Source of the DNA: Mesobacillus jeotgali
Lineage (GTDB): Bacteria > Bacillota > Bacilli > Bacillales > Cytobacillaceae
Length of the DNA stretch: 64,000 nt
Reading direction: 5' to 3'
Assembly: GCF_014856545.2 (NCBI RefSeq)
Contig: NZ_CP109811.1
Coordinates: 4,582,001-4,646,000, forward strand
Of the stretch, positions 9,185 to 51,368 are shown piece by piece. The notes beneath the pieces were generated by a model. That model did no database searches. It worked only from the letters and a program-made list of their open reading frames with translations, and had not been told where the DNA came from. Position 1 is the stretch's first letter. Each line of letters begins with the position of its first letter. The position numbers were made by a program, and so were the translations under genes.

Positions 9185-9280
9185 CAACCGTTAAAAAAAG
9201 TGCTGCAACCGTTAAATTTTTTTGCTCAACCGTTAAATTCCTCGCTACAACCGTTAAATTATTGCTCCCAACCGTAGAAT
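9185..9280. repeat. Short-period array A: core CAACCGTTAAAT, 21-bp period, 5 copies
   Basis: The core CAACCGT begins at 9185, 9206, 9227, 9248 and 9269, exactly 21 bp apart each time. The core is conserved over about 12 nt and the remaining 9 nt vary. It fills the spacer between ywnJ and the NERD gene. There is no internal dyad and no open reading frame explains it. Confidence 0.9.
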
Positions 9281-9383
9281 TAATAGTTCTGACATAAAAC
9301 TTTCATAATAAAACGGTTATTTCGGTAGGTATTTTCAGTGTAGATAAAGAATTCAAATGAAAACTAATAAGGAAGTGACCAAA

Positions 9384-10373
9384 TTGATTGAAAAAGGAAG
9401 GACATATCCCATCCGTCTTCTCATGTATGAGGCTTTAATGGAAAGAATTAAACCAAATCATCCAAAAATCCCACTAATTGAACAAGATTACAAAGCTCGA
9501 CGCGCTGGATATAAGGGTGAATTGCAAACGGATTACCGCCTGAGTTTTTTACCCGAAAAAGGGTTCCATATTTTTCGTGATTTACGCCTCCTAGATGGAG
9601 AATGGCCTTTCCAGATAGATACCCTCATCCTAACTCTTCGTTATATCCTACTAATTGAAACAAAAGCCTTTTCCGGAACCCTTTTCTTCGACAAGCATTC
9701 CGAACAAATGATTCAAACAAAGAATGATCAGGAGAAATCATACGATAATCCCATTAACCAGGTTCGTATGCAAGCATGGCATTTGAAAGGATGGCTGCAA
9801 AACCATAAGTTCACTGTCCCTCCGATATACCAGTTTGTAGCCATCAGTAATTCCTCTACCATTATCAAGGTGAGTGACCGCTCCCTGAATAATATAATTG
9901 TGAAAGGTGATGTATTATTAAGCCGCGTTCTTCAAATCGACGATACCACTTCAAATCCAAACTTTACTGATAAAGAAGTAAAAAAGCTATCCAAGTCACT
10001 TTTAAAGAATCATACTCCTCACTACCCTGACATTCTTAAACAATATTCACTTACCCCGGATGATCTCCAAAAAGGCGTACAATGTCCGTCTTGTTTATCA
10101 TATGGAATGAATCGCGAAAAATGGGTCTGGCGTTGTCCGGTGTGCGGGCATAAGTCCAAAAATGCTCACCATAAGACTGTAAAAGAGTTTTTCCTCCTTA
10201 TTAGTCCAACAATTAAGAATCAGAGGTGCAGAGAATTTTGCAGCGGCATTTCATCAAAAACAGCCAGTGATCTTTTAATTTCATTGAATCTCCCCTTCAC
10301 AGGCATGACTAATGGCCGCATCTACCACATGCCACCAGACATCGAAACGTTCTTTAATCCTGCGAAAAAATAA
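9384..10373 (+). CDS. NERD-domain (nuclease-related) protein with zinc ribbon
   Basis: A 329-residue protein. An N-terminal helical segment (LMYEALMERIKPNHPKI) leads into a NERD domain (roughly residues 30-150) with the restriction-endonuclease-like core GYKGELQTDYRL, DTLILTLRYILLIETKAF. A four-Cys zinc ribbon follows (CPSC...CPVC, about residues 233-256). NERD proteins are predicted nucleases or DNA-processing factors of unknown role. I use the TTG start at 9384 because AAGGAAGTG stands 6 nt upstream and gives the usual family N-terminus; ATG 9357 lacks a site. It is visibly more AT-rich than its neighbours and interrupts the conserved spoIIQ-spoIID order, suggesting a later insertion. Confidence 0.85.
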   Translation: MIEKGRTYPIRLLMYEALMERIKPNHPKIPLIEQDYKARRAGYKGELQTDYRLSFLPEKGFHIFRDLRLLDGEWPFQIDTLILTLRYILLIETKAFSGTLFFDKHSEQMIQTKNDQEKSYDNPINQVRMQAWHLKGWLQNHKFTVPPIYQFVAISNSSTIIKVSDRSLNNIIVKGDVLLSRVLQIDDTTSNPNFTDKEVKKLSKSLLKNHTPHYPDILKQYSLTPDDLQKGVQCPSCLSYGMNREKWVWRCPVCGHKSKNAHHKTVKEFFLLISPTIKNQRCREFCSGISSKTASDLLISLNLPFTGMTNGRIYHMPPDIETFFNPAKK

Positions 10374-10398
10374 ATTTCCTACGCACAGCCAATCGCGC

Positions 10399-10427
10399 TA
10401 AAAAGCCAGGGCGCTTTTTGCCCTGGC
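10399..10427 (-). terminator. Terminator of spoIID
   Basis: A perfect 8-bp stem GCCAGGGC/GCCCTGGC (10405-10412 with 10420-10427), followed on the minus strand by TTTTTAG. It lies between the convergent spoIID and NERD genes; no T-tract supports use on the plus strand. Confidence 0.9.
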
Positions 10428-10434
10428 CTGGTAA

Positions 10435-11463
10435 TTATTTCTTCGCTGTCACCTTCGTCAGCATGCTATCGGCTTCGCTGATCTCAACGCCTTTGTAGTA
10501 GTGCTTGACGATGTCTTGATAGTTCTTTCCTTCGGTGGCCATGCCGTTGGCTCCGTATTGGCTCATGCCGACGCCGTGGCCGAAGCCTTCGGTGGTGATG
10601 ACGACGTTACCGCCTTTTAATTCCCAGGAGAAGTCGCTTGAGCGAAGGCCTAGTTTTTCACGGACTTCTTTACCTGTGAGGACTTTGCCCCCGATATCGA
10701 TTTTCGCAACGCGGTTGCCTGATGTTCTTGAGATGACCTTGCCGATCTCCGGACTGTTCGGCAGCTTGACGCCAAGCTTAGATTCGACCTCGGCTACGGT
10801 CATCACGGACTGGCTCCGGAACTTCGGCGATTGCAGATCCCATGGGCTTTCTACACTCCGCAAATACGGCAGCGAGTTTGACCAGTATTCCTCTGAGTTC
10901 TCCGTAAAGCCATTAGAGGTAGAGAAGAAGGTAGCATCAATCGGTGAGCCGTCATAGGTGAGTACCTGGCCATCAGTGGCTTTCACAGCCTCTGCAATCT
11001 TCTTCATTTTCCATTTGTAGTCGACGCCCCATTGCTTTTTCAATTCTTCTTTATTTTTAAATACCTGGTGGATCTCTGTATCATTCAACTGAGCGCCTTC
11101 AGGTACGCCTACTTTATTGGGGCTCAGCATTTGTTTTACATAATAAGTCCTTGCCGACAGTGCCTGTGCCTTCAATGCCTCCAGCTCGAACTCGGCGGGC
11201 ATTTCAGCAGCAACGACACCAATCAAGTATTCATCAAGCGGAAGCTTTTCGGTTTTTGATAGAGCTGTCCTGTAAACGGCTACCTCAACAGCAGAGTCTG
11301 CGGTCGGGACAGCAGCAGCATCCTTCGCTTCGCTTTGCAGCTCTTCCCCCAGCTTTCCGCCTGCCTTTTCTTCCATAAAAGGGAGGACGAGCAATGATGG
11401 GATCAGTAGTGTGACGGCGAATAGAATTGCAGCTAGTACGATGAGTGGTTTGAATTTTAACAT
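10435..11463 (-). CDS. spoIID: Stage II sporulation protein D (peptidoglycan lytic transglycosylase)
   Basis: A 342-residue mother-cell protein with an N-terminal membrane anchor (about residues 5-30). SpoIID cleaves glycan strands and, with SpoIIM and SpoIIP, drives septal thinning and engulfment. The SpoIID domain is clear: the catalytic-glutamate region VVAAEMPAEFELEALKAQAL, then ARTYYV and the C-terminal GFGHGVGMSQYGANGMA. Start ATG 11461-11463 follows GGAGG at a normal distance; an upstream in-frame start at 11478 overlaps that site. It lies downstream of murAA in the same direction, as in B. subtilis. Confidence 0.96.
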   Translation of the reverse strand: MLKFKPLIVLAAILFAVTLLIPSLLVLPFMEEKAGGKLGEELQSEAKDAAAVPTADSAVEVAVYRTALSKTEKLPLDEYLIGVVAAEMPAEFELEALKAQALSARTYYVKQMLSPNKVGVPEGAQLNDTEIHQVFKNKEELKKQWGVDYKWKMKKIAEAVKATDGQVLTYDGSPIDATFFSTSNGFTENSEEYWSNSLPYLRSVESPWDLQSPKFRSQSVMTVAEVESKLGVKLPNSPEIGKVISRTSGNRVAKIDIGGKVLTGKEVREKLGLRSSDFSWELKGGNVVITTEGFGHGVGMSQYGANGMATEGKNYQDIVKHYYKGVEISEADSMLTKVTAKK

Positions 11464-11512
11464 AGAAAAAGCCTCCATTATGAAATTTCACGGTCGTTAA
11501 CCGTCTCATTCC

Positions 11513-11542
11513 ATTCATATGGAGGCAGACAAGCTTTTATGA
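11513..11542 (-). promoter_or_regulatory. Possible sigma-E promoter of spoIID
   Basis: On the minus strand TCATAAA (11536-11542), a 14-bp spacer and CATATGAAT (11513-11521) weakly resemble the sigma-E pattern KMATATT-N14-CATACANT. spoIID is a classical sigma-E gene, but both boxes have mismatches. Confidence 0.3.
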
Positions 11543-11710
11543 CAGATTTCGAAAAAGCTCTGTATTTGTATATTTTCTTTTAAAACGTTCATAATAAGTC
11601 GGTCGAAATTGGACAGATATTTTTAAAATAATGCCAACCAAAAATCAAAAAACCGCAGAACTATACGTTAAAGCACAATTCTCCGGTTCATTGAGTAGTA
11701 TTCTTAATGG

Positions 11711-11760
11711 TTCATGTCTGAGACTAAATTAGCTTATGCGTTCATGTCTGAGACTAATTT
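11711..11760 (-). repeat. 30-bp in-frame tandem duplication of the murAA 3' end
   Basis: TTCATGTCTGAGACTAA occurs at 11711 and 11741, exactly 30 bp apart. The second copy encodes the MurAA C-terminus LVSDMNA; the first lies just after the stop codon and in the same frame would encode ANLVSDMNH followed by a stop. It looks like a recent slippage duplication at the gene end. Confidence 0.85.
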
Positions 11761-13041
11761 ATCAGTTACTGGCTGTTCTTCTACTTCGCTTACGCGTTCG
11801 ATGTCGGCCCCAAGTGCAGCAAGCTTATGATGGAAGTTCACATAGCCGCGATCCAGGTGGTAAAGCTCTGTCACGCGAGTTACTCCATCTGCTACAAGTC
11901 CAGTCAGGATCAGTGATGCTGCGGCACGCAGGTCAGTTGCTGCCACTTCTGCTCCCTGAAGGTTTGATGGTCCGTTCATGATAACAGAACGTCCGTCGAT
12001 TTTGATGTTTGCGTTCATGCGGCGGAATTCTTCCACGTGCATGAAGCGGTTTTCGAAAACAGTTTCCGTGATCATGCTTGTGCCTTGAGCGCGCAACAGC
12101 AATGCCATCATCTGGGATTGCATATCTGTCGGGAAGCCAGGGTGCGGCATTGTCTTGATGTCTACTGCTTTCAATTTTTCAGGCCCGATGACACGAAGGC
12201 CCTCTTCTTCTTCAATGATCGTAACGCCCATTTCTTCCATCTTGGCAACCAATGAAGAAAGATGTTCAGGTACAGCGCCTTTTACAAGGACGTTGCCGCC
12301 AGTGATGGCAGACGCAACCATGAAGGTTCCTGCTTCAATACGGTCAGGAATGATATTGTGGTCAGCACCGAACAGTACTTCAACACCCTCGATTTTGATT
12401 GTGCCAGTGCCGGCACCTCTGACCTTCGCTCCCATTTTGTTCAGGAAGTTGGCAAGGTCGACGATTTCTGGTTCTTTTGCGACGTTTTCGATGATCGTTG
12501 TGCCTTTTGCAAGGACAGCCGCCATCATAATGTTTTCCGTAGCTCCTACGCTAGGGAAATCAAGGTATATTTTAGCTCCGTGCAGACCATTGACTGCTTC
12601 AGCTTCGATAAAACCGTTTCCTACCTTGACAGTCGCACCCATTGCTTCAAAGCCTTTAAGGTGCTGGTCAATAGGACGGGAACCGATTGCGCAGCCGCCT
12701 GGCAGCGCTACGCGAGCACGGCCATTCCTGGCTAGCAGGGATCCCATTACCAATACAGAAGCACGCATTTTTCGTACATACTCAAAAGGCGCTTCTATCT
12801 TTAACTCTCTGGATGCATCTACTGTAATCGTGTTATTTTCAAACTCCACTACGGCGTTTAAAGAACGTAATACTTCGTTGATGGTATATACATCGGAGAG
12901 AGTTGGCACATCACGAATTACGCTTTTTCCGTCACTTGCTAATAATGTTGCAGCGATAACAGGCAAGACGGCATTCTTAGCTCCTTCAACCTTTACAGAA
13001 CCGCTTAGCCTTTGTCCGCCGCGGACGATGATTTTTTCCAA
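11734..13041 (-). CDS. murAA: UDP-N-acetylglucosamine 1-carboxyvinyltransferase MurAA
   Basis: A 435-residue enolpyruvyl transferase that moves enolpyruvate from PEP to UDP-GlcNAc, the first committed step of peptidoglycan synthesis and the fosfomycin target. The catalytic cysteine is in [18 protein letters not shown] (about residue 117), and the N-terminus [20 protein letters not shown] is typical. Translation starts at a TTG (13039-13041) behind GGAGGGG with a 7-nt spacer. It is the first of two MurA paralogues here; the other is murZ at 55.5 kb, as in other low-GC Gram-positives. Position between ywmB and spoIID matches B. subtilis murAA. Confidence 0.97.
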
Positions 13042-13073
13042 GTGTATTCCCCTCCGCGTCCAATTTCTCTATA

Positions 13074-13793
13074 TTAATATTCAATCGTTATGATGGGTGT
13101 GCCAACTACGAGGGTAGTCTTTGCGCCCAATCGTTCAGTTTTCCGTAATCCAAGCTGCATATTCATCTCATGTTCATTGCTCAGTGACTTGTCGAATAAA
13201 GGCGAAACGGCGGATGTGGAAATGAATGTCTCCTCTTCCAATCCTTCGACTTCCTCCGCTTTAAAAGCCTTTAGCAATTTACTTTTATAAACAGGTAAAG
13301 CCGATTTTATCTTATCATTGAACTCGCCTTCAATACAAGAGAAAGTTGTGGCATTTCCTCGAAAAATGTCAAATATTCTGCCTGGTAAATTTTTGTTTAA
13401 AAAGGTTTCTGTATTTTTATTCCAGTAGCGACCTCTGACCTCATACATGACATACGTTTGTATCGGCCCGTTTGTGTCCGTAGAAACAATTTTAATTTTT
13501 TCCTGAAGTTCTGGAGAGTTCGTTACGGCTGTAATTTCTCCATCGCTCCCTTCCCATGTCCAATTTGGAAGCTGAGCCTTCAAGTCCCTTACCAGTCTGT
13601 CGACATTTTCTTCTTCCAGGGTTTCCCTTGCATATACCGACCACCCAGTGATCAAAATATTTTCGTCCTGCAAAACTGAGGCCAGAGTTTTTATTTCGTG
13701 ATTAGCGTCAGCTACAGTCGTCTTATTCCCAGCTTGAAGCACAATAAAACCAATAATGCCAAAAATTGATAAAATAAATGGAATCTTCTTCAT
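13074..13793 (-). CDS. ywmB: YwmB family protein
   Basis: A 239-residue protein with an N-terminal signal peptide or membrane anchor (MKKIPFILSIFGIIGFIVLQ), so most of it should lie outside the membrane. The rest matches the Bacillaceae YwmB family, named in databases for a TATA-binding-protein-like fold; no biochemical role is established. It is 32 bp upstream of murAA in the same direction, as in B. subtilis, which hints at an envelope-related role (inference). Confidence 0.88.
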   Translation of the reverse strand: MKKIPFILSIFGIIGFIVLQAGNKTTVADANHEIKTLASVLQDENILITGWSVYARETLEEENVDRLVRDLKAQLPNWTWEGSDGEITAVTNSPELQEKIKIVSTDTNGPIQTYVMYEVRGRYWNKNTETFLNKNLPGRIFDIFRGNATTFSCIEGEFNDKIKSALPVYKSKLLKAFKAEEVEGLEEETFISTSAVSPLFDKSLSNEHEMNMQLGLRKTERLGAKTTLVVGTPIITIEY

Positions 13794-14157
13794 ATGTCTT
13801 TCACTCTCCCCTTATTACCATTCTTACCAGGAGAGCAAATCGCATACTTGGGAATTCTCGTCACTTTTTGACATCATTCTATGTACCAACTTGGCCGGGT
13901 GTTTATCGTTTGTGAAAAAATAAACATGCTTATGCAAAAAAACAAGCACAAAGCCAATTTTACTCAAAATAAATCATTTTGAAAACATGTATGAAGACCT
14001 AATTTTTTACCAATTTGTTTAGACTTTACAGTAATGTATGACAAAAAGTCCAAAATGCGTGCAGTAATTGCTGGTTTCTCTCCAGAAAAGTTCTACTTTC
14101 AGAAGGCATAATGCCACTTCTTAAGTGGAAAGCACAGTAATATTTTCGAAAAGACCT
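13794..14157. other. 364-bp gene-free spacer
   Basis: AT-rich DNA between ywzB and ywmB. I see no reading frame with a ribosome-binding site, no array of the type found in other spacers, and no strong hairpin with a T-tract. The ywmB-murAA promoter is presumably here but no -35/-10 pair stands out. Confidence 0.6.
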
Positions 14158-14394
14158 TTACTGAAAAATCATCGGGAGCTGCTGTGACCATTGGAGGTAA
14201 TCAAGGAAGAAATTACTTACTGTGGATCCCAGTGCGATGGAAAGTAGGATGTATAGAACGCGAGCTTGAAGAACATGATTAGCTCTGAGCAATTTATCAA
14301 ACTGCAGTGCCTGAAGGGCCCACCATGAAAGCGCAATAAAAATCAAATGTGTAAGAATGCTGGTAAGCGCAAAACCGCCAAAACCTGTTATCAT
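14158..14394 (-). CDS. ywzB: DUF1146 family membrane protein YwzB
   Basis: A 78-residue protein with two membrane helices (roughly 10-30 and 45-65), matching the DUF1146/YwzB family common in Bacilli. It lies in the atp/nuo-murAA interval as in B. subtilis. AAGGGGGG precedes the ATG at normal spacing. Its function is not known. Confidence 0.85.
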   Translation of the reverse strand: MITGFGGFALTSILTHLIFIALSWWALQALQFDKLLRANHVLQARVLYILLSIALGSTVSNFFLDYLQWSQQLPMIFQ

Positions 14395-14499
14395 AAATCG
14401 TCCCCCCTTATCATGTTTATTTTAACATAAACGCGATGATTACCTGTTATATAGACGTTTCAGAAACGGGAAAGTTTCATGTTCTTGATTGTCTCTTTT

Positions 14500-14636
14500 G
14501 GGCACATGTTTCTCCTTCTTGTCATTGTCATTATTGATTCCTCTTCTGAAGGGCACAGGTTTTCCTTTCTTGTGACGGGCACATGTTCAACCTTCATGTG
14601 ACCGTAGTTCCCAATTGCCTCTTTCAACGGGCACAA
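14500..14636. repeat. Short-period array B: core GGGCACATGTT, 26-bp period
   Basis: GGGCACA begins at 14500, 14551, 14577 and 14629. The gaps of 51, 26 and 52 bp fit a 26-bp period with two degenerate units (about 14526 and 14603). Units share a pattern of GGGCACATGTT followed by a pyrimidine-rich CCTTCTTGTGAC. It fills the spacer between the complex I terminator and ywzB. Twenty-six is not a multiple of three, so it is not a coding repeat. Confidence 0.8.
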
Positions 14637-14674
14637 ATTAAAAAACTGGCCTGCTATTAAAGCAAGGCCAGCTG
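14637..14674 (-). terminator. Terminator of the nuo operon
   Basis: CTGGCC...GGCCAG stem (14646-14651 with 14667-14672) extended by an inner TGCT/AGCA pair, followed on the minus strand by TTTTTTAATTT. It lies about 110 bp after the nuoN stop codon. Confidence 0.88.
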
Positions 14675-14783
14675 AATTTACCCCTTTGTTTCCATGAATT
14701 GATTTTCCCCAAAATCCAAACATGATTGGTGCTTTTTCGAGCTTACTACCCAATTATCAAAGCAATAAGTTAACGAAAAGAGC

Positions 14784-16304: not shown

Positions 16305-16310
16305 CCTTCA

Positions 16311-23243: not shown

Positions 23244-24626
23244 CTACACCTCCACATCATACGGTTCATAGTCTTTTCTTAATGGGTGGCCTACCCAGTC
23301 TTCACCAAGCATGATGCGATGGAGGTTTGGATGGCCTTCGAATTTGATGCCAAGCAGATCGTACGCTTCACACTCCGGCCAATCAGCGCCTGCCCATAAA
23401 GGCTGGACGGACTGGGTAACAGGTGCATCGCGGTCAAGCTTGACTTTCAACGCAACAGACTGCCTGTTTTTGTATGAGTACAAGTGAACATACACTTCCA
23501 TATGTGTCTGGAAATCAGTGCCGTGCAGCTCTGATAGGTAATCGAAGCCTAATAGTTCGTTGTACTTCAGGAATTCAGCCAGTCGGTAATAGGATTCTTT
23601 CTTTGCGACAAGCGTCGGGACATCTTTTGAAAGAGGATTAATATACGAATCTTCCAAAATATCATCACCAAGGTTGTCGGTAATCGCTTTTACATATTTA
23701 TCCAAGTAAGGCTGGTTTGGAGATGGCTTTTGCTCTTCAACAGGTTCTTCTGCTCCTGCCTTTGAGCCAGCTGCTGACTTCGCCTTTGCTGCTGCGGCTG
23801 CTTTTGCCTTCGCTGCTGCAATCGCTTTCGCTTTCTCGTCGTCAGCTGATCCTCCGCCGGCTGCGGCTTTGGCTTTTGCTGCTGCGGCCGCCTTTGCTTT
23901 TGCTACGGCTGCGGCTTTCTTTTTCGCCAGATCATCATCGTCCGTTGAAGCGTCTGCTTCTCCGCCTGCCTCCTGAGCTTTCCTTTTCGCTGCCGCTGCT
24001 GCCTTTGCCTTCGCTACGGCTGCGGCTTTCTTTTTCGCCAGGTCATCGTCGCCTGCTGGAGCATCTGTCTCTCCGGCTGCGCCTGCCTCCTGAGCTTTTC
24101 TTTTCGCTGCCGCTGCTGCCTTTGCTTTTGCTACGGCTGCGGCCTTCTTTTTCGCCAGATCATCGTCGTCGCCCGCTGTAGCTTCAGGCGCTGCAGATTC
24201 TTCAGTGCTTTCCTCTGCCTGTCCGGATGCCTTCATTTTTGCAAGAGCGGCTGCTTTTGCTTTTGCTGCGGCTGCTGCTTTTTTCTTGGCTAATTCAGCG
24301 TCCTGGCCTTCTACCGGAGCCGATACTTCCTCTTTGGATTCCGATGCTTCGTCAGCCTGGCCATTCGCCTTCATTTTTGCCAGTGCAGCTGCTTTCGCTT
24401 TCGCTGCTGCGGCGGCTTTCTTCTTGGCAAGTTCGGCGTCATCACCTGCTGGTGCTTCTGCCTTTGCCTCGGTTTCCTTCACTTCAGGTTCTGCGACTTT
24501 GTCGGCAACCTCTTTCGGGTCGTTTCCTTCCCCTGCCTGTTTAGCAGCCTGTCGCTGCTTCGCAAGCTCCTTTGCCTTTTCGGCTGCTTCTCTCTTTATC
24601 TGCTCTAAATCCTTTTCCCCGCTCAT
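23244..24626 (-). CDS. nuoC: Complex I 30-kDa subunit NuoC with long Lys/Ala repeat extension
   Basis: A 460-residue protein. Only residues about 304-460 are the conserved NuoC domain (ending in the family motif near HPNLHRIMLGEDWVGHPLRKD). Residues 1-300 are a low-complexity charged region with five copies of a unit resembling LAKKKAAAVAKAKAAAAAK, starting near residues 66, 112, 157, 196 and 233 and separated by acidic linkers. Such extensions are known on NuoC of other Bacillaceae, but their job is not established; a helical spacer or a docking platform replacing the missing NADH module are possibilities (inference). Confidence 0.93.
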   Translation of the reverse strand: MSGEKDLEQIKREAAEKAKELAKQRQAAKQAGEGNDPKEVADKVAEPEVKETEAKAEAPAGDDAELAKKKAAAAAKAKAAALAKMKANGQADEASESKEEVSAPVEGQDAELAKKKAAAAAKAKAAALAKMKASGQAEESTEESAAPEATAGDDDDLAKKKAAAVAKAKAAAAAKRKAQEAGAAGETDAPAGDDDLAKKKAAAVAKAKAAAAAKRKAQEAGGEADASTDDDDLAKKKAAAVAKAKAAAAAKAKAAAGGGSADDEKAKAIAAAKAKAAAAAKAKSAAGSKAGAEEPVEEQKPSPNQPYLDKYVKAITDNLGDDILEDSYINPLSKDVPTLVAKKESYYRLAEFLKYNELLGFDYLSELHGTDFQTHMEVYVHLYSYKNRQSVALKVKLDRDAPVTQSVQPLWAGADWPECEAYDLLGIKFEGHPNLHRIMLGEDWVGHPLRKDYEPYDVEV

Positions 24627-25596: not shown

Positions 25597-25963
25597 CAAG
25601 CCTTTGAACAATCTGGCAACCTTCTTCCAAGCCTTTTTCAATAGAAAAATAGTTTCTTGATTGAGCTTGTATAGACGGGAGGAAAGAGGGTCCCCTTTCA
25701 TACTTAGTTGCATGGAAGACAATATATTCTTACTCTTTTGCCCAGGCCTTTTTCGAGCGCCTGCCTGGTTGGAGGGTGCAGCCTCCGAAGCATGCGCTTT
25801 TAACGGTAAAACGCAGCAGACAATCGGTTACATTCTATATTAAATACAATTTGGATTAAGTTGTCAGTGACGTTTGTCAACATTGATAAGTTCTGTGACA
25901 GCGTAGTTTATGGCGGAATTGTGGACTTTTGGTTAGGGGGAGTTTTAGAGGGTAATTATTTAG

Positions 25964-26044
25964 GAGTTGAGTGGTGAATTGAGTGTTGAGTGATGCTTGG
26001 GCCAATGAATTGAGCGATGAGTAAAGAATTGAGTGGTGAATTGA
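25964..26044. repeat. Irregular short repeat C: core GAATTGAGTGGTGA
   Basis: TTGAG(T/C)G occurs at 25967, 25979, 26010 and 26029, with spacings of 12, 31 and 19 bp, embedded in an (A/G/T)-rich strand. It resembles the regular arrays in being a multiplied short core but lacks a fixed period. Confidence 0.55.
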
Positions 26045-26140
26045 TCTCTGAACATGGGTTTTTTTATTAAGACAGCCGAAATTTGAGTTCACACTTGAAT
26101 TATCAGCATAATTTCCAGGCTAAACATTGATAGTAATATG

Positions 26141-26251
26141 TTTTATAGCGAAAAATTGGTTTTTATAGCGAATTTTTAGTTTTTATAGCGATTATTTAAT
26201 TTTTATAGCGAGTTTTTAGTTTATATAGCGACTTTTCTATTTATATAGCGA
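26141..26251. repeat. Short-period array D: core TTTTATAGCGA, exact 20-bp period, 6 copies
   Basis: ATAGCG occurs at 26145, 26165, 26185, 26205, 26225 and 26245, each exactly 20 bp apart. The core of about 11-12 nt (TTTTATAGCGA; TATATAGCGA in the last two) is conserved and the remaining 8 nt vary. The array lies downstream of the atp terminator and upstream of the nuo promoter. The same core and period recur at 41.4 kb. Confidence 0.95.
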
Positions 26252-26353
26252 AACGGAATCTGCTCCTAGATTTGTAAACTTTCTGGAAGCGTCATTTGTA
26301 AATCACCTGGCAGCAACACAACAAAAAATCCACCGCCGCCCCTTACTCTACAT

Positions 26354-26388
26354 AATAAAAACACCCCCCAGCAGCGCCGGAGGGTGTT
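26354..26388 (-). terminator. Terminator of the atp operon
   Basis: A 9-bp stem (ACACCCCCC at 26361-26369 with 26379-26387, one mismatch) followed on the minus strand by TTTTATT, 11 bp after the atpC stop codon. Confidence 0.9.
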
Positions 26389-36388: not shown

Positions 36389-36473
36389 CAAGACGGAATC
36401 CCCCTTTTTCCGTTAGCGTTTCAATTAATGGGTGCTAATATACGGAGGTGATTTTTCCAAAAGTAGGGTGAAC

Positions 36474-36735
36474 GTGCAATTATGCTTAATGTTCGTGCAA
36501 TTATGGTAGTTTTTCGTTCAATTATTTTAGTTGAGTGTGCAATTATTACTGGGTTTGGTGCAATTAGTGAATTTATTTGATTTTAAAATTTTTCCAGCTG
36601 ACGTTTGGGTTGAAGTTTTTTACCAAATATAGGATGACGGCACGATTATTCTCAAGTTTTGGGCAATTAATCAGATTTTTCGGGAGATTATTGTGTTTAA
36701 TCAGGAGAATATCGATGAGTTTTGGGCAATTATCT
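36474..36735. repeat. Short-period array E: core GTGCAATTA, 21-bp period, 5 regular copies plus degenerate second block
   Basis: CAATTA-type cores begin at 36477, 36498, 36519, 36540 and 36561, exactly 21 bp apart. A second block has TTTTGGGCAATTA cores at 36664 and 36727, 63 bp apart (three periods of 21), with degenerate units between. The array sits in the 496-bp spacer between the protease gene and the mnaA terminator. Its core is the reverse complement of array H at 51.3 kb. Nothing else is evident in this spacer. Confidence 0.9.
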
Positions 36736-41435: not shown

Positions 41436-41547
41436 TTTTTATAGCGAAAATAACTTTTTTATAGCGAATTTTGAAATTTTATAGCGAAAAATCATTTTTT
41501 ATAGCGATTTTTTCATTTTAATAGCGAAATTCTGGTTTTTATAGCTA
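41436..41547. repeat. Short-period array F: core TTTTATAGCGA, exact 20-bp period, 6 copies
   Basis: ATAGCGA (ATAGCTA in the last copy) begins at 41441, 41461, 41481, 41501, 41521 and 41541, exactly 20 bp apart. Core, period, copy number and orientation equal array D 15 kb away. It sits in the 326-bp spacer between the chemoreceptor terminator and rpiB. Confidence 0.95.
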
Positions 41548-41578
41548 ACTGGAAATTCGGCTTCATTTTTTCCAGTTT

Positions 41579-41609
41579 TTAAAAAAACCACAGCCTCATT
41601 CAGCTGTGG
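41579..41609 (-). terminator. Terminator of the chemoreceptor gene
   Basis: A perfect 8-bp stem ACCACAGC/GCTGTGGT (41586-41593 with 41602-41609), followed on the minus strand by a run of T residues, about 10 bp after the stop codon. Confidence 0.92.
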
Positions 41610-45240: not shown

Positions 45241-45419
45241 GTACATCCACCTTTTACTTCTCGCTATACTAGTCTATTTCTATGAAAGTATAAAAGAAGA
45301 ATAAGCAGAACTCAAGTTTTTATCCACAAATTGTGTACAGTTTTAGCGAATCCGTGGATAACTTTGTGGATTAATCCACAATCCACAGAATTATTTTCAT
45401 AATTGCAGAGTTATCCACA
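45182..45419. promoter_or_regulatory. DnaA-box cluster spanning ywlC start and ywlB end
   Basis: Eight matches to TTATCCACA on either strand within 240 bp: perfect at 45200-45208, 45320-45328 and 45411-45419; one mismatch at 45182-45190, 45212-45220, 45353-45361, 45365-45373 and 45372-45380. Weaker copies lie at 45219 and 45379. It overlaps the first codons of ywlC and the last of ywlB. A DnaA-box cluster between ywlC and ywlB is reported for B. subtilis as one of the DnaA-regulated sites outside oriC. Confidence 0.9.
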
Positions 45420-45826: not shown

Positions 45827-45902
45827 ATCTATCACCTCAAAAATAAGATTCTAGTAAATAGATATGAGAGACATGAAAAAGTAGAACCTAAAGAGGACAA
45901 AA

Positions 45903-45933
45903 AGAAAACACGGCAGCCTCCAAAGCTGCCGTG
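45903..45933 (-). terminator. Terminator of gsiB
   Basis: A perfect 9-bp stem CACGGCAGC/GCTGCCGTG (45909-45917 with 45925-45933), then TTTTCTTTTTG on the minus strand. Confidence 0.92.
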
Positions 45934-45967
45934 CATTCTTAATTTCCAGGCTTTCTAAGCCAACTGA

Positions 45968-46357
45968 TTAGTTATTGTTGTTGTTATTGCGGGCATTGCC
46001 GCCTTTTTCACCGATTTCTTCATAGAAGCTTCGGTCATGATTGTTGGAAGTCGCTTCGCCGCCTTTACGGCCGATTTCCTGATAGAAGTCCTTGTCGTGG
46101 CTTTCGGATGTTGCTTCGCCACCTTTTTTACCGATTTCCTGGTAGAATTCGCTGTCATGGCTTTCAGCAGTAGCCTCTCCGCCTTTGCGGCCAATTTCCT
46201 GATAGAAATCTTGATCGTGATTGTTGGAAGTTGCTTCGCCGCCTTTACGGCCGATTTCCTGATAGAATTCGCTGCCATGGTTCTGGCTTGTTGCTTCGCC
46301 GCCCATGCGTCCTCGTTCTTCACGTGACATCTTATCATTATTATTGTTTTTAGCCAT
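45968..46357 (-). CDS. gsiB: General stress hydrophilin GsiB (KGG repeats)
   Basis: A 129-residue, highly hydrophilic glycine-rich protein with five tandem 20-residue repeats of the form FYQEIGRKGGEATSNNHD, framed by MSREERGRMGG and an Asn-rich C-terminus. This is the GsiB/LEA-like KGG family, thought to protect against dehydration. AAGGAGG precedes the ATG. It has a matching sigma-B promoter. The Asn run at the end comes from a GTT/ATT microsatellite near 45970. Confidence 0.95.
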   Translation of the reverse strand: MAKNNNNDKMSREERGRMGGEATSQNHGSEFYQEIGRKGGEATSNNHDQDFYQEIGRKGGEATAESHDSEFYQEIGKKGGEATSESHDKDFYQEIGRKGGEATSNNHDRSFYEEIGEKGGNARNNNNNN

Positions 46358-46406
46358 TATTACTCATCCTCCTTGAAATCTAAGTTTTGATGTTACACTA
46401 CTTTAA

Positions 46407-46432
46407 ATATCCGGATTCTCCCATCATGAAAC
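46407..46432 (-). promoter_or_regulatory. Sigma-B promoter of gsiB
   Basis: On the minus strand GTTTCA (46427-46432), exactly 14 bp, then GGATAT (46407-46412): 5 of 6 in each box to GTTTAA-N14-GGGTAT. gsiB is a standard sigma-B gene in B. subtilis. The -10 is about 50 bp before the start codon. Confidence 0.85.
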
Positions 46433-46577
46433 TATTATCCGGGGAATGTAATATGCTTGTTCGAATAATGTAATATTTTTGGAAATTCCGACAGCCATTT
46501 TTCCTCTTTTACCAAGTATTTCTTAAGAGAAGCTAGCTAATGTTTCCTAGCTTCTCATAGTGAAAAATTCATAAGTG

Positions 46578-46620
46578 AGTGATTTAAGTCACTATGTCGG
46601 TCATTTTGTATGGTTATAAT
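46578..46620 (+). promoter_or_regulatory. Promoter with Fnr-like box upstream of the truncated haemoglobin gene
   Basis: A perfect -10 TATAAT (46615-46620) has no good -35, but AGTGA-TTTAAG-TCACT (46578-46593) matches the Bacillus Fnr consensus TGTGA-NNTANN-TCACA at all positions except the outermost pair. Its centre is 41.5 bp before the expected start point, the standard class II activator position. Confidence 0.65.
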
Positions 46621-46663
46621 AAAGGTAATCAATTGAAAACCTTTCTCAAAAAGGGGGTACGAG

Positions 46664-47041
46664 ATGGAAATCAAAACAATATATGAAGCGGTTGGCGGAG
46701 ATCAATCAATCCGGAAGATTGTCGATACCTTTTATCCAAAGGTATACGAAAATGAGGAACTCAGCCCCTTGTTCGAGGGCGATATGGAGGAAATCAAGCG
46801 GAAGCAGTGGATGTTCCTCACGCAGCTGACCGGCGGCGGTGCCCTTTACAGCGAGGAATTCGGGCCGCCTAATATGAGGGTGCGGCATATGCCATTCGAA
46901 ATTACACCGGTTCGCGCCCAGGCATGGCTGAAGCTGATGCACGAAACATTGACGGAAACAGGCTTGATTGAAACCGACGGCGGGAAGGCCCTGTTCGAGC
47001 GTCTGAGCCAGATTGCACCTATTATGATCAACAGACAATAA
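46664..47041 (+). CDS. Group II truncated haemoglobin
   Basis: A 125-residue 2/2 globin. Proximal histidine H75 (RVRHMPFEI), B10 tyrosine Y24 (DTFYPKVY) and G8 tryptophan W88 are the group II markers, as in B. subtilis YjbI. Such globins bind oxygen and NO and may work in oxidative or nitrosative defence. A GGGGG site precedes the ATG. It forms an operon with the cupin gene 14 bp downstream. Confidence 0.94.
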   Translation: MEIKTIYEAVGGDQSIRKIVDTFYPKVYENEELSPLFEGDMEEIKRKQWMFLTQLTGGGALYSEEFGPPNMRVRHMPFEITPVRAQAWLKLMHETLTETGLIETDGGKALFERLSQIAPIMINRQ

Positions 47042-47055
47042 GGAGGAATTTTACG

Positions 47056-47397
47056 ATGGAAAAACAGTCACTGAAACAATACCAGGAATTCAGCGAAGAA
47101 CGTTTTACGAAAAGAATTGTATTTAAAAAAGGTGACAGCACCGTGTTCCTGCTGAACTTCATGCCCGGACAGGAGCTGCCTAAGCATAAGCATCCAGGTA
47201 CAGAAGTGTTCATTTTAACCATGCAGGGCGAAGGCACTTTCATTGTCGACGGAGAAGAGGTCGTGGCAGCAGCAAACGAAACCGTCCACCTGGGCGGCAC
47301 CGAAGAACTTGCCTATAAAAATACCGGATCAGAGCCAGTCTCACTTTATGTGATGCTCAACAAGATTCCGGATGAGAGGTTTGCGCAGAATATTTAA
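47056..47397 (+). CDS. Small cupin-domain protein
   Basis: A 113-residue single-domain cupin. Motif 1 is GQELPKHKHPGTEVFILTMQG (first part) with two His and one Glu as metal ligands; motif 2 is NETVHLGGTEEL with the third His. AAGGAGG lies before the ATG. Co-transcription with the haemoglobin gene suggests a redox or oxygen-linked role (inference); the substrate is unknown. Confidence 0.88.
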   Translation: MEKQSLKQYQEFSEERFTKRIVFKKGDSTVFLLNFMPGQELPKHKHPGTEVFILTMQGEGTFIVDGEEVVAAANETVHLGGTEELAYKNTGSEPVSLYVMLNKIPDERFAQNI

Positions 47398-47446
47398 AGA
47401 ACAGAACTCTAGATAGCAGTCGATCATGAGTGGATAATCCCCAGTT

Positions 47447-47562
47447 GGTCGAATAATTCTGTAATGTGGTCGAATAAATAGAAAAAGTGGTCGAATTATT
47501 TATAAATCCGCCAAATTAATTCAAAATGTGGTCGAATTATCCGAAAATGTGGTCGAATAAAT
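47447..47562. repeat. Short-period array G: core GTGGTCGAATAA, 21-bp period
   Basis: GGTCGAAT begins at 47447, 47468, 47489, 47530 and 47551. The steps are 21, 21, 41 and 21 bp; the 41-bp step contains a degenerate unit (CCGCCAAATTAAT near 47508). It fills the 265-bp spacer between the convergent cupin and spoIIR genes. Confidence 0.9.
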
Positions 47563-47625
47563 TCTATCGGCGAAAAAAGGCACCTCATTTAGCTCGATAT
47601 ATGGCCCTGTTAATTAATGTTCTGT

Positions 47626-47664
47626 TAAAAAATAGCCCCTGCAGCCATCGCAGGGGCTTATTTT
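47626..47664. terminator. Bidirectional terminator between cupin and spoIIR
   Basis: A perfect 9-bp stem AGCCCCTGC/GCAGGGGCT (47634-47642 with 47650-47658). On the minus strand it is followed by ATTTTTTAAC (spoIIR) and on the plus strand by TATTTTATCC (haemoglobin-cupin operon). Confidence 0.88.
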
Positions 47665-48367
47665 ATCCGAAAATCCTGTTCCAAATCTCGACGAGGAAGA
47701 AAGATACCTCAACTTCTTCTTCTTCTCCGCCTTCATATACCTTTTTCTTGCCTTTTTTACTATCTTTTTTCTCATCAGCAAGCTTGGCATCAGCAGACTC
47801 GTCTTCTGCGTCCGCTTTTACATCGCCTTTGCTGTCATTTTCATCGAAGCCTTCGCTTGTTGCTTCACCGTTTGAGAAATCAAGGAAGCATAGCGGCGGA
47901 TAGAGGACGCACCACCAGTTTGCGCCTTCACCTTCGCCAAGTGTAATCAGGATTGCTTCGTATTCACCTGCCGGATAGAGGAACTGACCATATAATTTAG
48001 TAGGAAACTGGACTTTGTCAAACTCCGTTTTTACAGATTGATTAGAGCCTTCAGCTGCAACAACTCTTTCCGCGATTGCCTGGATTTCCGGAAGCCTGGA
48101 CTTAATGACTTCCCTCGCTGCCTCGATTGACGTCAGCTCCTGGACCCATGTCGTGATTTCTTTGTTCACTTCATCGCGGATCAGGCGTTTGATATTCTGG
48201 TCCTTTTCCAGATCGCTGTCGGCAAGGATCCTCAGGCGGATCGCCTCGTTCGGGATGACCATCGCTTCCTTCGCGGTCACTTCATTTTTTGGTGTATATA
48301 AACTTAAAATAGTACCTGCACATAGTAATAATATGTATATAATAGCGGCTGATTTTTTCATCATCAT
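47663..48367 (-). CDS. spoIIR: Stage II sporulation protein R
   Basis: A secreted forespore signalling protein that activates SpoIIGA to process pro-sigma-E in the mother cell. An N-terminal signal sequence (SAAIIYILLLCAGTILSLY) precedes the conserved domain (IPNEAIRLRILADSD to NWWCVLYPPLCFLD). Before the C-terminal amphipathic end (VSFFLVEIWNRIFG) there is an added acidic and lysine-rich linker of about 50 residues. The exact start is uncertain among three consecutive ATG codons and an upstream GTG at 48376. Confidence 0.93.
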   Translation of the reverse strand: MMMKKSAAIIYILLLCAGTILSLYTPKNEVTAKEAMVIPNEAIRLRILADSDLEKDQNIKRLIRDEVNKEITTWVQELTSIEAAREVIKSRLPEIQAIAERVVAAEGSNQSVKTEFDKVQFPTKLYGQFLYPAGEYEAILITLGEGEGANWWCVLYPPLCFLDFSNGEATSEGFDENDSKGDVKADAEDESADAKLADEKKDSKKGKKKVYEGGEEEEVEVSFFLVEIWNRIFG

Positions 48368-48434
48368 CTCTCGCACCGTCCCTTCACTAGTAAACAGTGT
48401 GGACAGTTTGATAGATTCTTAAACTAGTAATTTT

Positions 48435-48468
48435 GAAAAAAAAATGGACCCCTTTTTATCAGGAGCCC
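48435..48468 (-). terminator. Probable terminator of prmC
   Basis: An imperfect stem (GGACCCCT with AGGAGCC, about 48446-48468) overlapping the prmC stop codon, followed on the minus strand by ATTTTTTTTTC. Confidence 0.6.
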
Positions 48469-49325
48469 AACTCAGCGAAAACCATCCGGTCCTTGCCATT
48501 AATATCAAAAACAACCTCAACATTGGCATGCGGGAAGGTTTTTTCCAGCAATCCTCGTACCGCTTCACCCTGGCCAGCGCCGATTTCAAACCCAACCAAT
48601 GCTTTTTCTTTTAAAACAAGCGGAAGTTCGTCCATGAAGCGGCGATACAGGTCCAATCCATCCTCGCCTGCAAAAAGCGCCATATGCGGTTCATGCTCAG
48701 TGACGATATCAGACATCCACTCCTGGTCTGCAACCGGGATATATGGAGGGTTTGAGATGACGGCATCGACCTTTTTCCCTTGTGAAATGAGCGGCTGGAG
48801 CAGGTCTCCATGTAAAAACTCGATATCCGCACCAAGTTCGCTGGCATTTTTCCGCGCCACCTCTAGTGCATCTTTAGAGAGGTCGACCGCTGTTACCTTC
48901 AACTCTGGTTTTTCCAGCTTCAAGGTAACTGAAATCGCGCCGCTACCGGTGCCGACATCGACAAGGTCGATTTCATTTTTTCCTGGAAAAAGCATTTCAA
49001 GACGCTGAATCGTTCCTTGCACAAGTTCTTCCGTCTCAGGCCGGGGAATCAGTACATGCTCATTCACAATGAAGCGGCGGTCGTAAAACTCCTCGCTGCC
49101 AATGATATATTGAATCGGCTCCCCGGCAGAATGCCTTTTTACAGCGTTCTGGAACTCGGTCCATACTTCGCCATCCAGTTCATCGCGCATCTTCATCAGC
49201 ATGGAGGTGCGGGACAGCCCCGAATAGTGCCGCAGCAAAAGCTCACGGGCAAATTCCTCACGATTATGTTCTTTTAAAAAAGAAGAAGCCCAATTGAGGG
49301 CTTCAAATATTTTCAAATTAGTCAT
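48459..49325 (-). CDS. prmC: Peptide chain release factor N5-glutamine methyltransferase
   Basis: A 288-residue SAM-dependent methyltransferase that modifies the GGQ glutamine of RF1 and RF2. The SAM motif [14 protein letters not shown] and the catalytic NPPY motif ([11 protein letters not shown]) are intact; an N-terminal helical domain (1-75) binds the release factor. ATG 49323-49325 overlaps the prfA stop codon, so its substrate gene and it are translationally coupled. Confidence 0.96.
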
Positions 49326-50397
49326 TGTTCGCACTCTCAAGTCTTTGAGATTGGTCTTCCATAATTAGCGCTTCGATGATCTCATCCATCTTGCCCTGAA
49401 GAATCTGGTCAAGCTTCTGGATCGTCAGGCCGATACGGTGATCGGTCACGCGGTTTTGCGGGAAGTTGTACGTACGGATACGCTCAGAGCGGTCCCCAGT
49501 ACCTACAGCAGATTTACGAACCTGGTCATACTCCGCCTGTGCTTCCTGCTGGAACTTGTCATAGACGCGGGCACGAAGTACCTTCATCGCCTTGTCTTTG
49601 TTTTTATGCTGAGATTTTTCATCCTGGCACGATACGACGATTCCAGTTGGGATATGCGTCAGACGTACCGCTGACATTGTCGTGTTAACAGACTGTCCGC
49701 CGGCACCGCTGGACGCGAATGCATCAAAACGGATGTCTTTATCATGCAGCTCGATTTCCACTTCTTCCGCTTCAGGAAGACAGGCAACAGTAGCTGTCGA
49801 AGTATGGATACGGCCGCCTGATTCCGTTTCCGGAACACGCTGGACGCGGTGCGCACCATTTTCGAACTTCATTTTGGAATAAGCGCCATTTCCATTGATC
49901 ATGAAGATGATCTCTTTAAAACCGCCCACGCCAGTCGTGCTGGCATCGATGATTTCCGTTTTCCAGCCTTGTGATTCCGCATAACGGCTGTACATCCTGT
50001 AAAGGTCGCCGGCAAACAGAGCAGCTTCATCGCCGCCTGCAGCGCCGCGGATTTCCATGATAACGTTCTTGTCATCGTTAGGATCTTTAGGGATCAGAAG
50101 GACCTTGATGCGAGCTTCAAGCTCCTCGATTCGCGGCTCCAGCTCAGAAATTTCTTCCTTTACCATCTCGCGCATCTCAGCATCGAGCTTTTCCTCGAGC
50201 ATCGCTTTTGCATCTGTCAGCTGCTCTTTAACTTCCTTATATTCACGATAAGCCATGACAGTTTCCTGGATGTCAGACTGCTCTTTTGAATACTCGCGGA
50301 GCTTTTTGGAGTCATTGACAACTTCCGGGTCACTCAATAGCTCATTCAATCTTTCATAACGATCCTCTACTGCTTGAAGACGATCAAACACGGACAT
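49318..50397 (-). CDS. prfA: Peptide chain release factor 1
   Basis: A 359-residue release factor reading UAA and UAG. The GGQ motif is in [16 protein letters not shown] and the N-terminal coiled-coil and domain 2 are complete. Overlaps prmC by 8 bp. Confidence 0.98.
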
Positions 50398-50570
50398 TCA
50401 CCTCTATTTTAATATCCTTTAAAATGGATTATTACTCTATTCACGGTTATATTACCGGTTATTCAATAAGTGCAATTACATAGCATAACATTCTAATTAT
50501 AGTATAGGTGACACCCTCAGTCAAAGCCATTGTGAATAGAAGAGTGCAAACGCCTTGGTCAGCCCTGGCA

Positions 50571-50587
50571 AGTGCTGGAGCTAGACA
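50571..50587 (-). repeat. Partial copy of the Bacillaceae intergenic repeat
   Basis: AGTGCTGGAGCTAGACA is the inverted, truncated form of the word at 29270-29283 (13 identical nt, TGTCTAGCTCCAG). It lies in the prfA-lipoprotein spacer. Confidence 0.45.
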
Positions 50588-50634
50588 CTAATCTAAATTA
50601 AAATAATTTGGAGCGCACTTGTTCGATACAACGG

Positions 50635-50664
50635 AAAAAGCATGCCCTTTTATGAGAGCATGCT
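50635..50664 (-). terminator. Terminator of the lipoprotein gene
   Basis: A perfect 7-bp stem AGCATGC/GCATGCT (50639-50645 with 50658-50664) and TTTTTCCG following on the minus strand. Confidence 0.82.
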
Positions 50665-50680
50665 GCTGCAATGCAAACTT

Positions 50681-51130
50681 CTATTGAATATCAACGTTAA
50701 TGTCATAGCGTGGCAATGCTCTTGCCAGCTTTTCCTGAAGTGTCTTTTGTGCATTTTCACGATCTTTTCTCGTCACGCGGCCTTGGAGTTGTGCGGTTAC
50801 GTTCATTTCACCGCCGTTGATCCAGATCGTGCCCGGCTCATAGCCTGCATCAGAAATGACATCCTTCGCCTTTTGGACGTCCTGGGAAAAACTATAGTGG
50901 TTTTCATTATCGGTATTCAGCAAATTCGGATTCTGGTCGGTCATTGTCATGCCGTCATCCTGGTCCCTCGTGAAATTCGGACCGTCTCCTTCGCGGACAC
51001 CGTCACCCTCTCTATTCAGATCCACGCCAGCCTGGTCTTCATCCTTGTCATAAACTGATTCGGTATTATCCTGGCCACATCCAGCGACCATAATCACAGC
51101 AAACATAAGCAACATGAGTAATTTTTTCAA
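50681..51130 (-). CDS. Lipoprotein, possibly YhcN/YlaJ-like sporulation type
   Basis: A 149-residue protein with a lipoprotein signal ending at the lipobox MVAGC. An acidic linker of about 60 residues precedes a small alpha/beta domain (SQDVQKAKDVISDAGYEPGT to RYDINVDIQ). The C-terminal part loosely resembles spore lipoproteins of the YhcN/YlaJ kind, but I cannot confirm the family. TTG start (51128-51130) with GGAGGTG 7 nt upstream. Confidence 0.75.
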   Translation of the reverse strand: MKKLLMLLMFAVIMVAGCGQDNTESVYDKDEDQAGVDLNREGDGVREGDGPNFTRDQDDGMTMTDQNPNLLNTDNENHYSFSQDVQKAKDVISDAGYEPGTIWINGGEMNVTAQLQGRVTRKDRENAQKTLQEKLARALPRYDINVDIQ

Positions 51131-51274
51131 ATTATGGCACCTCCCGTGGTTAAGTTGCCCTTTTCAGAGGCATTTCATGCGTTTTCGGTAAGAATGCAGC
51201 TTAATTTGATTAAAATAGGACTTTTTCACTTCAGAATCTTTAACTGGAAAAATTATTCTCTTACTCAGCAGCAA

Positions 51275-51368
51275 TAATTGCACCGTACAGGGCCATAATT
51301 ACGGTTTCAAAACCATTAATTGCACATTCAACGGTAATAATTACACCAAAAAGTTACGTAATTGCACT
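51275..51368. repeat. Short-period array H: core TAATTGCAC, 21-bp period, 5 copies
   Basis: TAATT begins at 51275, 51296, 51317, 51338 and 51359, exactly 21 bp apart, with the 9-nt core TAATTGCAC (TTACGG or TTACAC in two copies). The core is the reverse complement of array E at 36.5 kb. It lies in the 380-bp spacer between the lipoprotein gene and the tdk terminator. Confidence 0.92.

What the first reader, a model, noticed from the sequence alone, without database searches (positions are those of the whole stretch)
9185..51368. A family of short-period (20/21/26-bp) core-and-spacer arrays in spacers between transcription units
Six arrays (A 9.2 kb, B 14.5 kb, D 26.1 kb, E 36.5 kb, F 41.4 kb, G 47.4 kb, H 51.3 kb; seven with B counted) share one architecture: a conserved core of 8-13 nt every 20, 21 or 26 bp, and variable sequence in between. 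Where the context is clear they sit between a terminator and the next gene, never inside an operon. Cores differ between loci, but D and F share one, and E and H share another in opposite orientation. A 20-21-bp period is two helical turns, so cores face the same side of the DNA, which suggests a protein-binding platform or a dedicated amplification mechanism. I know of no described element with this design.
Basis: partly seen in the sequence, partly recalled or inferred. Interest (0 to 1): 0.85.

Follow-up and report, generated by a model that had tools for sequence, protein, structure and literature searches.

The report
Helically phased repeats after gene ends
Many soil Bacillus relatives carry short, precisely spaced DNA repeat arrays just past the ends of genes; the repeat core is strictly conserved inside a lineage but different between lineages, as if an unknown and fast-changing DNA-binding protein marks where genes stop.

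Summary
Six of the seven arrays (A, D, E, F, G, H) are real; B (26-bp) is weak. The window is from a Mesobacillus-type chromosome. A blind scan of 864 kb (partly chosen stretches) found 30 intergenic arrays with periods of 20 (23), 21 (6) and 31 bp (1), against none in ten shuffles. TATAGCGA repeated at about 20 bp occurs in 18 of 21 genomes of the genus and in 0 of 40 genomes of other genera. Of 80 prfA regions from other species, 34 carry 53 arrays with many different cores, often at the same spacer. In Mesobacillus most arrays belong to a composite element: gene end, usually a terminator, a shared 25-bp dyad (TGGAAAAAA-N10-TTTCCA), then about six 20-21-bp units pointing the way the gene is read. 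Cores differ by 1-6% between species, spacers by 20-38%; spacing is locked to two helical turns; some positions take A or T and rarely G or C. I read this as a cooperative protein-binding array at transcription-unit ends, probably a roadblock or insulator. The protein is unknown and the function is inferred. Nearest described: STAR elements and small dispersed repeats; it fails STAR's definition.

The parts
9185..9281 (+). Array A: 5 units, core CAACCGTTAAATT, period 21; after a VanZ-family gene, same orientation as that gene
14500..14642 (+). Candidate array B: 4 ragged copies of GGGCACA near a 26-bp lattice, after the end of nuoN and opposite to it; not above chance in the lattice test
26141..26252 (-). 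Array D: 6 units, TCGCTATAAAA on the minus strand, period exactly 20, after atpC
26260..26317 (-). Locus-specific leader dyad of array D (CTGCT..CCAG..ATCTAGGAGCAG), similar in relatives that carry either of two core families
   Evidence: boundaries read by eye
26360..26388 (-). Intrinsic terminator of atpC, gene side of array D
   Evidence: read from sequence
36473..36565 (+). Array E: 5 units, core CGTGCAATTAT, period 21; opposite to both flanking genes (an exception to the orientation rule)
41437..41545 (-). Array F: 6-7 units, TCGCTATAAAA on the minus strand, period 20, after an MCP gene and upstream of rpiB
41550..41574 (-). Common leader dyad TGGAAAAAATGAAGCCGAATTTCCA abutting array F
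41588..41609 (-). Intrinsic terminator of the MCP gene, gene side of the leader
   Evidence: read from sequence
47446..47564 (+). Array G: about 6 units (one degenerate), core TGGTCGAATTA, period 21, in a convergent spacer, oriented (by eye) with the plus-strand gene 47056-47397
51265..51365 (-). Array H: 5 units, GTGCAATTA on the minus strand, period 21, after tdk; arrays with the same core in the same interval of L070, L071 and L075

Best explanation
Each array is a row of about six binding sites, two helical turns apart, for a sequence-specific DNA-binding protein (or small family of proteins) that assembles cooperatively along one face of the DNA immediately past a gene end. In Mesobacillus a 25-bp inverted repeat next to the gene end is a further site that fixes where the array starts. 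The most likely role is an oriented transcription boundary: the filament stops RNA polymerase that has read through the terminator, or insulates the next unit. Shown: exact phasing, core constraint, biased orientation with the upstream gene, the leader-array composite, and positional conservation with core exchange between lineages. Inferred: that a protein binds, that binding is cooperative, and that the function is roadblock or insulation. The binder is unidentified; core differences between lineages imply that its specificity changes quickly.
For: Successive TCGCTATA cores in the 1.66-Mb sample lie 20 bp apart in 84 cases, 39-40 in 4, 61 in 1, and at no other distance up to 65 (19 stretches of the sample had been chosen with a pattern that allows 19-21 bp, but the free scan over lags 12-40 also gave only 20, 21 and one 31). 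Orthologous arrays: core mismatches 0.022, 0.011 and 0.055 against spacer 0.205, 0.336 and 0.378 (7, 9 and 14 genomes; core columns were taken from the alignment consensus). Positions -3, -2, +8, +17 and +18 of the unit take A or T and rarely G or C (0-7%), as in minor-groove reading. Leader: 37 places in the genome, 0 in the reversed control; 25 of 27 read are directly followed by units of one of three core families, two of them with only two clean units and one with three. Orientation with the upstream gene: 27 against 7 in the own genome, 38 against 5 in the prfA set with 10 of 53 set aside. A convergent spacer at C1:3890126-3890686 holds two arrays, one per gene, pointing at each other. 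The array region has no RNA structure beyond shuffles (mean z +0.99 over 35 arrays).
Against: No binding protein was found, and gene content was not searched for one. Orientation has exceptions (7 of 34, including array E), and the core-based orientation rule was written after seeing the cores; the blind A-versus-T rule is weaker for the prfA set (23 against 12, 3 ties) though clear in the own genome (16 against 4), both for co-directional spacers. A terminator-like hairpin lies between gene and array in only 40 of 62 cases with my simple detector. Copy number varies between species (4 to 9 at rpiB), and some genomes lack an array at a given site. GTGCAATTA and CAACCGTTAA arrays have no common leader. 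Reversed-pattern controls in the genus are not all zero (up to 4 matches, G003).
Confidence: 0.45

Rival explanations
1. Genome-organising sites: the arrays bind a nucleoid or segregation protein and sit after gene ends only because that is where protein-loaded DNA does least harm.
For: Leaders lie mostly near the contig start, taken as the origin: 34 of 37 within 1.25 Mb of it (p 2e-7 against an even spread). In a second complete genome 21 of 23 TATAGCGA loci lie within 1.25 Mb of the contig ends (p 9e-5).
Against: Orientation follows the upstream gene better than the direction of replication (my count: 26 against 7 for the gene, 20 against 13 for replication, one array of unknown orientation left out). 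In unchosen stretches without the window the excess near the origin is not significant (7 arrays at 289 spacers against 1 at 190, p 0.15). Enrichment near the origin could reflect where old core genes lie, which was not tested.
Confidence: 0.2
2. Non-functional or selfish repeats: minisatellites or a dispersed element tolerated after terminators, whose core is kept because its own propagation enzyme needs it.
For: Copy number changes between species, and identical neighbouring units point to local duplication. A shared leader with arrays is what a dispersed element would show. Small dispersed repeats of cyanobacteria are described as possibly mobile (one sentence in PMC2884548).
Against: TCGCTATA arrays at different loci (18 arrays) are no more alike than units dealt at random (mean 0.640 against 0.630), so no recent spreading is seen. 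No terminal repeats by eye. Cores are far more conserved than flanks at fixed orthologous sites. Array F with its leader has no match in 72,556 plasmids at the sensitivity used; both viral-contig hits are coding-type repeats unlike the element.
Confidence: 0.2
3. RNA-level element: read-through RNA carries about six copies of a short motif that recruits a nuclease or an RNA-binding protein.
For: Strand bias with the upstream gene. The leader of F can form a hairpin (z -3.3).
Against: Two-turn spacing with no other distances and A-or-T positions are signs of DNA reading. Arrays usually lie beyond terminators. Array RNA is less structured than shuffles. The outer pair of the leader dyad is C-A in several species (by eye).
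Confidence: 0.12
4. Local slippage products with no shared design, or chance.
For: Local unit duplication exists in G011 and G020 at rpiB.
Against: 0 arrays in ten shuffles; 84 pattern matches against 0 in the reversed control in one genome and 18 of 21 genomes of the genus.
Confidence: 0.02

Closest known systems
STAR elements of Staphylococcus (Purves et al. 2012, PMC3532100; abstract, sections 3 and 5 and passages read)
   Same: Interspersed intergenic direct repeats with a constant short motif and spacers that differ between loci; tens of loci per genome; several copies at some loci; function unknown.
   Different: STAR has one 14-bp GC-rich motif interspersed with at least 40 bp, most loci hold a single motif, and locations are not shared between species. 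Here units are 20-21 bp, helically phased, mostly oriented with the gene, in Mesobacillus preceded by a dyad; sites are shared between species and genera, and cores are exchanged.
Small dispersed repeats of cyanobacteria (Elhai et al. 2008; not held, seen only as a reference and one describing sentence in PMC2884548)
   Different: Not compared at sequence level; whether they have a conserved core with variable spacers, or sit after gene ends, was not seen.
Plasmid replication iterons and partition-site repeats (recalled, not from a call)
   Same: Tandem sites of about 20-22 bp bound cooperatively on one face of the DNA.
   Different: Tens of chromosomal loci after gene ends, no replication or partition gene beside the window arrays, many different cores.
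Sal-box/TTF-I terminator arrays of mammalian rDNA (recalled, not from a call)
   Same: Oriented repeats just downstream of a gene end, bound by a protein that stops polymerase.
   Different: Eukaryotic, one gene family, one motif; here function is inferred only.
REP/BIME, BOX and MIRU repeats (recalled)
   Same: Dispersed intergenic modular repeats.
   Different: Palindromic or much longer units, no 20-21-bp phasing; the array part here is not palindromic.

Membership tests
STAR element | 14-bp motif T(G/A/T)TGTTG(G/T)GGCCC(C/A) | tested here: not met
   Compared by eye: none of the cores listed resembles it
STAR element | at least 40 bp between motifs | tested here: not met
   Spacing 19-22 bp start to start
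STAR element | interspersed in intergenic regions, locus-specific spacers | tested here: met
Small dispersed repeat (cyanobacterial) | sequence or structure of the described families | not tested
   The paper is not held
Iteron / partition-site array | direct repeats of about two helical turns | tested here: met
Iteron / partition-site array | adjacent replication-initiator or partition gene | tested here: not met
   For the window arrays only: flanking genes are VanZ, nuo, atp, a protease, wecB, MCP, rpiB, spoIIR, tdk and poorly matched small proteins; upstream proteins of other own-genome arrays were only read by eye
Iteron / partition-site array | binding by a dedicated protein | not testable with these tools
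   No protein known
Minisatellite made by slippage | spacers as alike as cores between units | tested here: not met
   12-nt tails are 57% identical within arrays and 54% between, beside a constant core (18 arrays picked by that core)
CRISPR-like array | leader plus repeats with foreign-derived spacers and cas genes | tested here: inconclusive
   Leader plus repeats are present, but the TCGCTATA spacers are A/T-rich; spacer origin and cas genes were not searched
Mobile element / MITE | terminal inverted repeats and recent copies at new loci | tested here: not met
   Dyad only at the gene side and no conserved trailing motif, by eye; no excess similarity between loci

The most novel reading that the evidence does not exclude
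A bacterial counterpart of eukaryotic terminator or insulator arrays: a genome-wide system in which a fast-evolving DNA-binding protein, different in each lineage, builds short oriented filaments at the ends of transcription units, with the arrays rebuilt at the same sites whenever its specificity changes.
Probability: 0.22. Interest if true: 0.92.

Novelty: new variant of a known kind. Interest (0 to 1): 0.72.

Why it matters
If the reading holds, a widespread group of spore-forming bacteria marks gene ends with protein-bound arrays that, as far as my ten paper searches show, have no name, and the binder evolves fast enough that sister genera use different words at the same place. That would open a direct route to a new class of bacterial chromatin or termination factor (pull-down with array DNA) and would explain part of the intergenic DNA that annotation leaves blank. 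Even if the arrays are passive, fixed sites with exchanged cores are an unusual puzzle for repeat evolution.

Tried and rejected
Protein-coding repeats: a 20-bp period runs through all frames and cores such as TATAAAA/TTTTATAG carry stops, so a coding reading was rejected from the sequence. RNA families: one Rfam hit in the window, an L31 leader away from the arrays. Phage or plasmid origin: no plasmid match for array F with its leader (AT-rich queries are partly filtered; phage records were not searched by similarity); two viral contigs matched a TCGCTATA triple, but the matching stretch is one and the same region in both and reads as a heptad-type coding repeat (by eye). Recent dispersal of whole TCGCTATA arrays: rejected. 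The 26-bp array B was not rescued. Replication direction as the cause of orientation fits less well than gene direction (my count). An earlier count of arrays near the origin (13 in 804 kb against 1 in 460 kb) included the window itself, which was picked for its arrays; without it the difference is not significant.

Within-genome sharing of cores between loci is real but partial: 5 of 20 pairs share at least 6 conserved bases in a row, against 49 of 1218 between other pairs of different genomes and 20 of 137 at orthologous spacers of different genomes (p 0.001 for the first comparison), so each genome holds several core families rather than one.

Rows left out of counts: needs at least 4 units with 3 exact 7-mers and lags 17-24, so weak, short or long-period arrays are missed (H is missed, G). 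One search uses 7, 9 and 14 genomes of those with arrays; G011 and G020 were left out of the atpC TCGCTATA set and G004 out of the rpiB set. At rpiB the TCGCTATA arrays of G009 and G019, the GGTCGATAAAA arrays of G001, G006 and G007, and at atpC the degenerate array of G008 were read by eye, not found by the scan. In the prfA set 6 of 53 arrays could not be oriented and 4 had no gene called upstream; one of 35 own-genome arrays had no upstream gene and three counted as same-orientation were assigned by default.
Full report
Where it is. The window is 4582001-4646000 of a 4.84-Mb single-contig chromosome. Its release factor 1 (prfA) is 94-99% identical to those of Bacillus sp. ISL-55, Bacillus sp. 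REN3, Mesobacillus selenatarsenatis, M. subterraneus and M. boroniphilus, so I take the genome for a Mesobacillus. Window genes include parts of the nuo and atp operons, SpoIID, SpoIIQ, SpoIIR, an MCP, rpiB, wecB, tdk, prfA and rho.

The observation. Arrays A, D, E, F, G and H were reproduced at the stated places and periods. B is a ragged set of four 7-mers whose lattice score shuffles equal in 8 of 40 trials. A blind scan (an 8-mer at one lag of 12-40, with three exact copies or at least four copies with one mismatch) of 864 kb gave 30 arrays in 519 intergenic regions: 23 of period 20, 6 of 21, 1 of 31; ten dinucleotide shuffles gave none, and coding sequence gave two with other periods. About half of those stretches had been chosen for TATAGCGA. 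With 80 stretches plus the window (1.66 Mb) and one base of play per step, 38 arrays were found.

A system, not one-offs. TATAGCGA twice has 84 matches in the genome, all exactly 20 bp apart although 19-21 were allowed, and 0 in the reversed control. It is in 18 of 21 genomes of the genus and 0 of 40 genomes of other genera; reversed controls gave 0-4 matches per genome. Other families in the same genome are CGCCAATAAA and GCGAATAAA (20 and 21 mixed), and GTGCAATTA, GGTCGAAT, AACCGTTAA, AACTGGTA (21). In 80 prfA loci of other species, 34 carry 53 arrays. Steps in these and the own arrays together are 19 (15), 20 (235), 21 (210) and 22 (3), in a scan limited to lags of 17-24. Cores include GGCGGAAT, GTCCAAAAC, TGTACAAAAC, GCTACAAAAC, CGCCGATA, CGAGTAAA, GGAAAGTAA and GCACGCAA. 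In 33 stretches of 20 kb, 13 from other families of the order and 20 from genomes drawn from the phylum, none was found; this is thin sampling.

Same place, different core. About 1.3-1.8 kb upstream of fba ten species carry arrays with nine different cores (L093 and L121 share one); between prmC and spoIIR six species carry five cores (the two Robertmurraya share CCGATAT); between tdk and the next gene nine species carry five cores. Inside Mesobacillus, downstream of atpC, 11 of 20 genomes have TCGCTATAAAA arrays, 7 have CGCCAATAAA arrays that mostly start at the same base after a similar flank, and 2 have none by scan, one of which (G008) shows a degenerate 21-bp array by eye. Upstream of rpiB, 13 of 21 have TCGCTATAAAA arrays by scan and two more by eye, three have GGTCGATAAAA arrays by eye, G010 shows traces, and G008 and G012 none. 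G000 and G005 differ at atpC and agree almost unit by unit at rpiB.

Anatomy. Oriented by core, the element reads: stop codon, usually a terminator hairpin (40 of 62 by a simple detector, median 45 bp from hairpin end to first core), a leader, then the array. In Mesobacillus the leader is TGGAAAAAA-N10-TTTCCA, flanked by AAC and GTT in its fullest form. A pattern with 7-11 free bases has 40 matches at 37 places in the own genome, 0 in the reversed control. With GTTCG added it was found in all 5 Mesobacillus genomes of a 61-genome family sample and in none of the other 56, from 24 other genera. Of 27 leader loci read, 25 run directly into units of one of three core families (L234 and L247 with only two clean units, L235 with three), one has the array on the other side and one is inside a gene without array. 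A fourth core, TTCGCGGAAT, also follows this leader at 3916977. Array D has a different dyad, similar in relatives with either core family. In 17 arrays with a leader the commonest length is six units (10 of 17). Orientation agrees with the upstream gene in 27 of 34 own-genome arrays and 38 of 43 in the prfA set; the blind A-against-T rule gives 16:4 and 23:12 for co-directional spacers. In the window A, D, F, G and H agree, and E and the doubtful B do not.

Constraint. Between species core mismatches are 1-6%, against 20-38% in spacers and 11-37% in leader and flanks. In the TCGCTATA unit (20 own arrays, picked by that 8-mer) the following AA at +9 and +10 is nearly invariant, and positions -3, -2, +8, +17 and +18 take A or T but rarely G or C. 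Whole arrays at different loci are no more alike than units dealt at random, while identical tails are commoner within arrays (8 of 254 pairs) than between (12 of 5102). So units duplicate locally, drift, and keep the core.

How it most likely works. Exact two-turn spacing, a near-invariant core that reads GC then A-rich, A-or-T positions and a dyad at one end are what a row of cooperative protein sites looks like. Place (after gene ends, hardly ever between divergent genes) and orientation (with the upstream gene; two facing arrays in one convergent spacer) make an oriented transcription boundary the likeliest role. That last step is inference. Architecture near the origin is the main rival: 34 of 37 leaders lie within 1.25 Mb of the contig start, which I take to be the origin, and 21 of 23 TATAGCGA loci in a second genome; the comparison in unchosen stretches alone is not significant.

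What is known. Ten paper searches listed no description of such arrays in Bacillaceae; the library holds openly licensed papers only. STAR elements (PMC3532100; abstract, sections 3 and 5 and passages) are the nearest described kind that I could read and fail two defining tests here. Small dispersed repeats of cyanobacteria were seen only through one sentence and a reference. Iterons and Sal boxes are comparisons from memory. I file it as a new variant of interspersed intergenic direct-repeat arrays, with the boundary-system reading as the bold case.

Noticed in passing
window 25954-26051: A second, looser repeat in the same spacer as array D (TCAATTC on the minus strand at steps of 12, 19 and 31); related sequence is visible after the array in some relatives (by eye).
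   Followed up: partly
window 46011-46303: 60/120-bp coding repeats on the minus strand that look like a KGG-repeat stress protein (motif recalled, not tested).
   Followed up: no
window 23873-24170: 117-bp repeats inside an open reading frame of the nuo region, apparently a low-complexity linker.
   Followed up: no
window 52597-52629: L31-Firmicutes ribosomal protein leader (RF03156).
   Followed up: no
L208 (G008) and L209 (G012), downstream of atpC: Where the array is degenerate or missing, both spacers hold another similar GC-rich sequence (GGAACGGAAGG..), which may be a dispersed repeat (by eye).
   Followed up: no
L119 and L136: A different 38-39-bp tandem family with GGGGACAGGCCCCC in Neobacillus loci.
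   Followed up: no
L132: Unusually long arrays (30 and 37 units by the scan) in Bacillus sp. CECT 9360.
   Followed up: no
G000:C1:843883-845600: What reads like a group II intron reverse transcriptase gene (by eye) lies directly before an array, as if an intron had inserted between terminator and leader.
   Followed up: no
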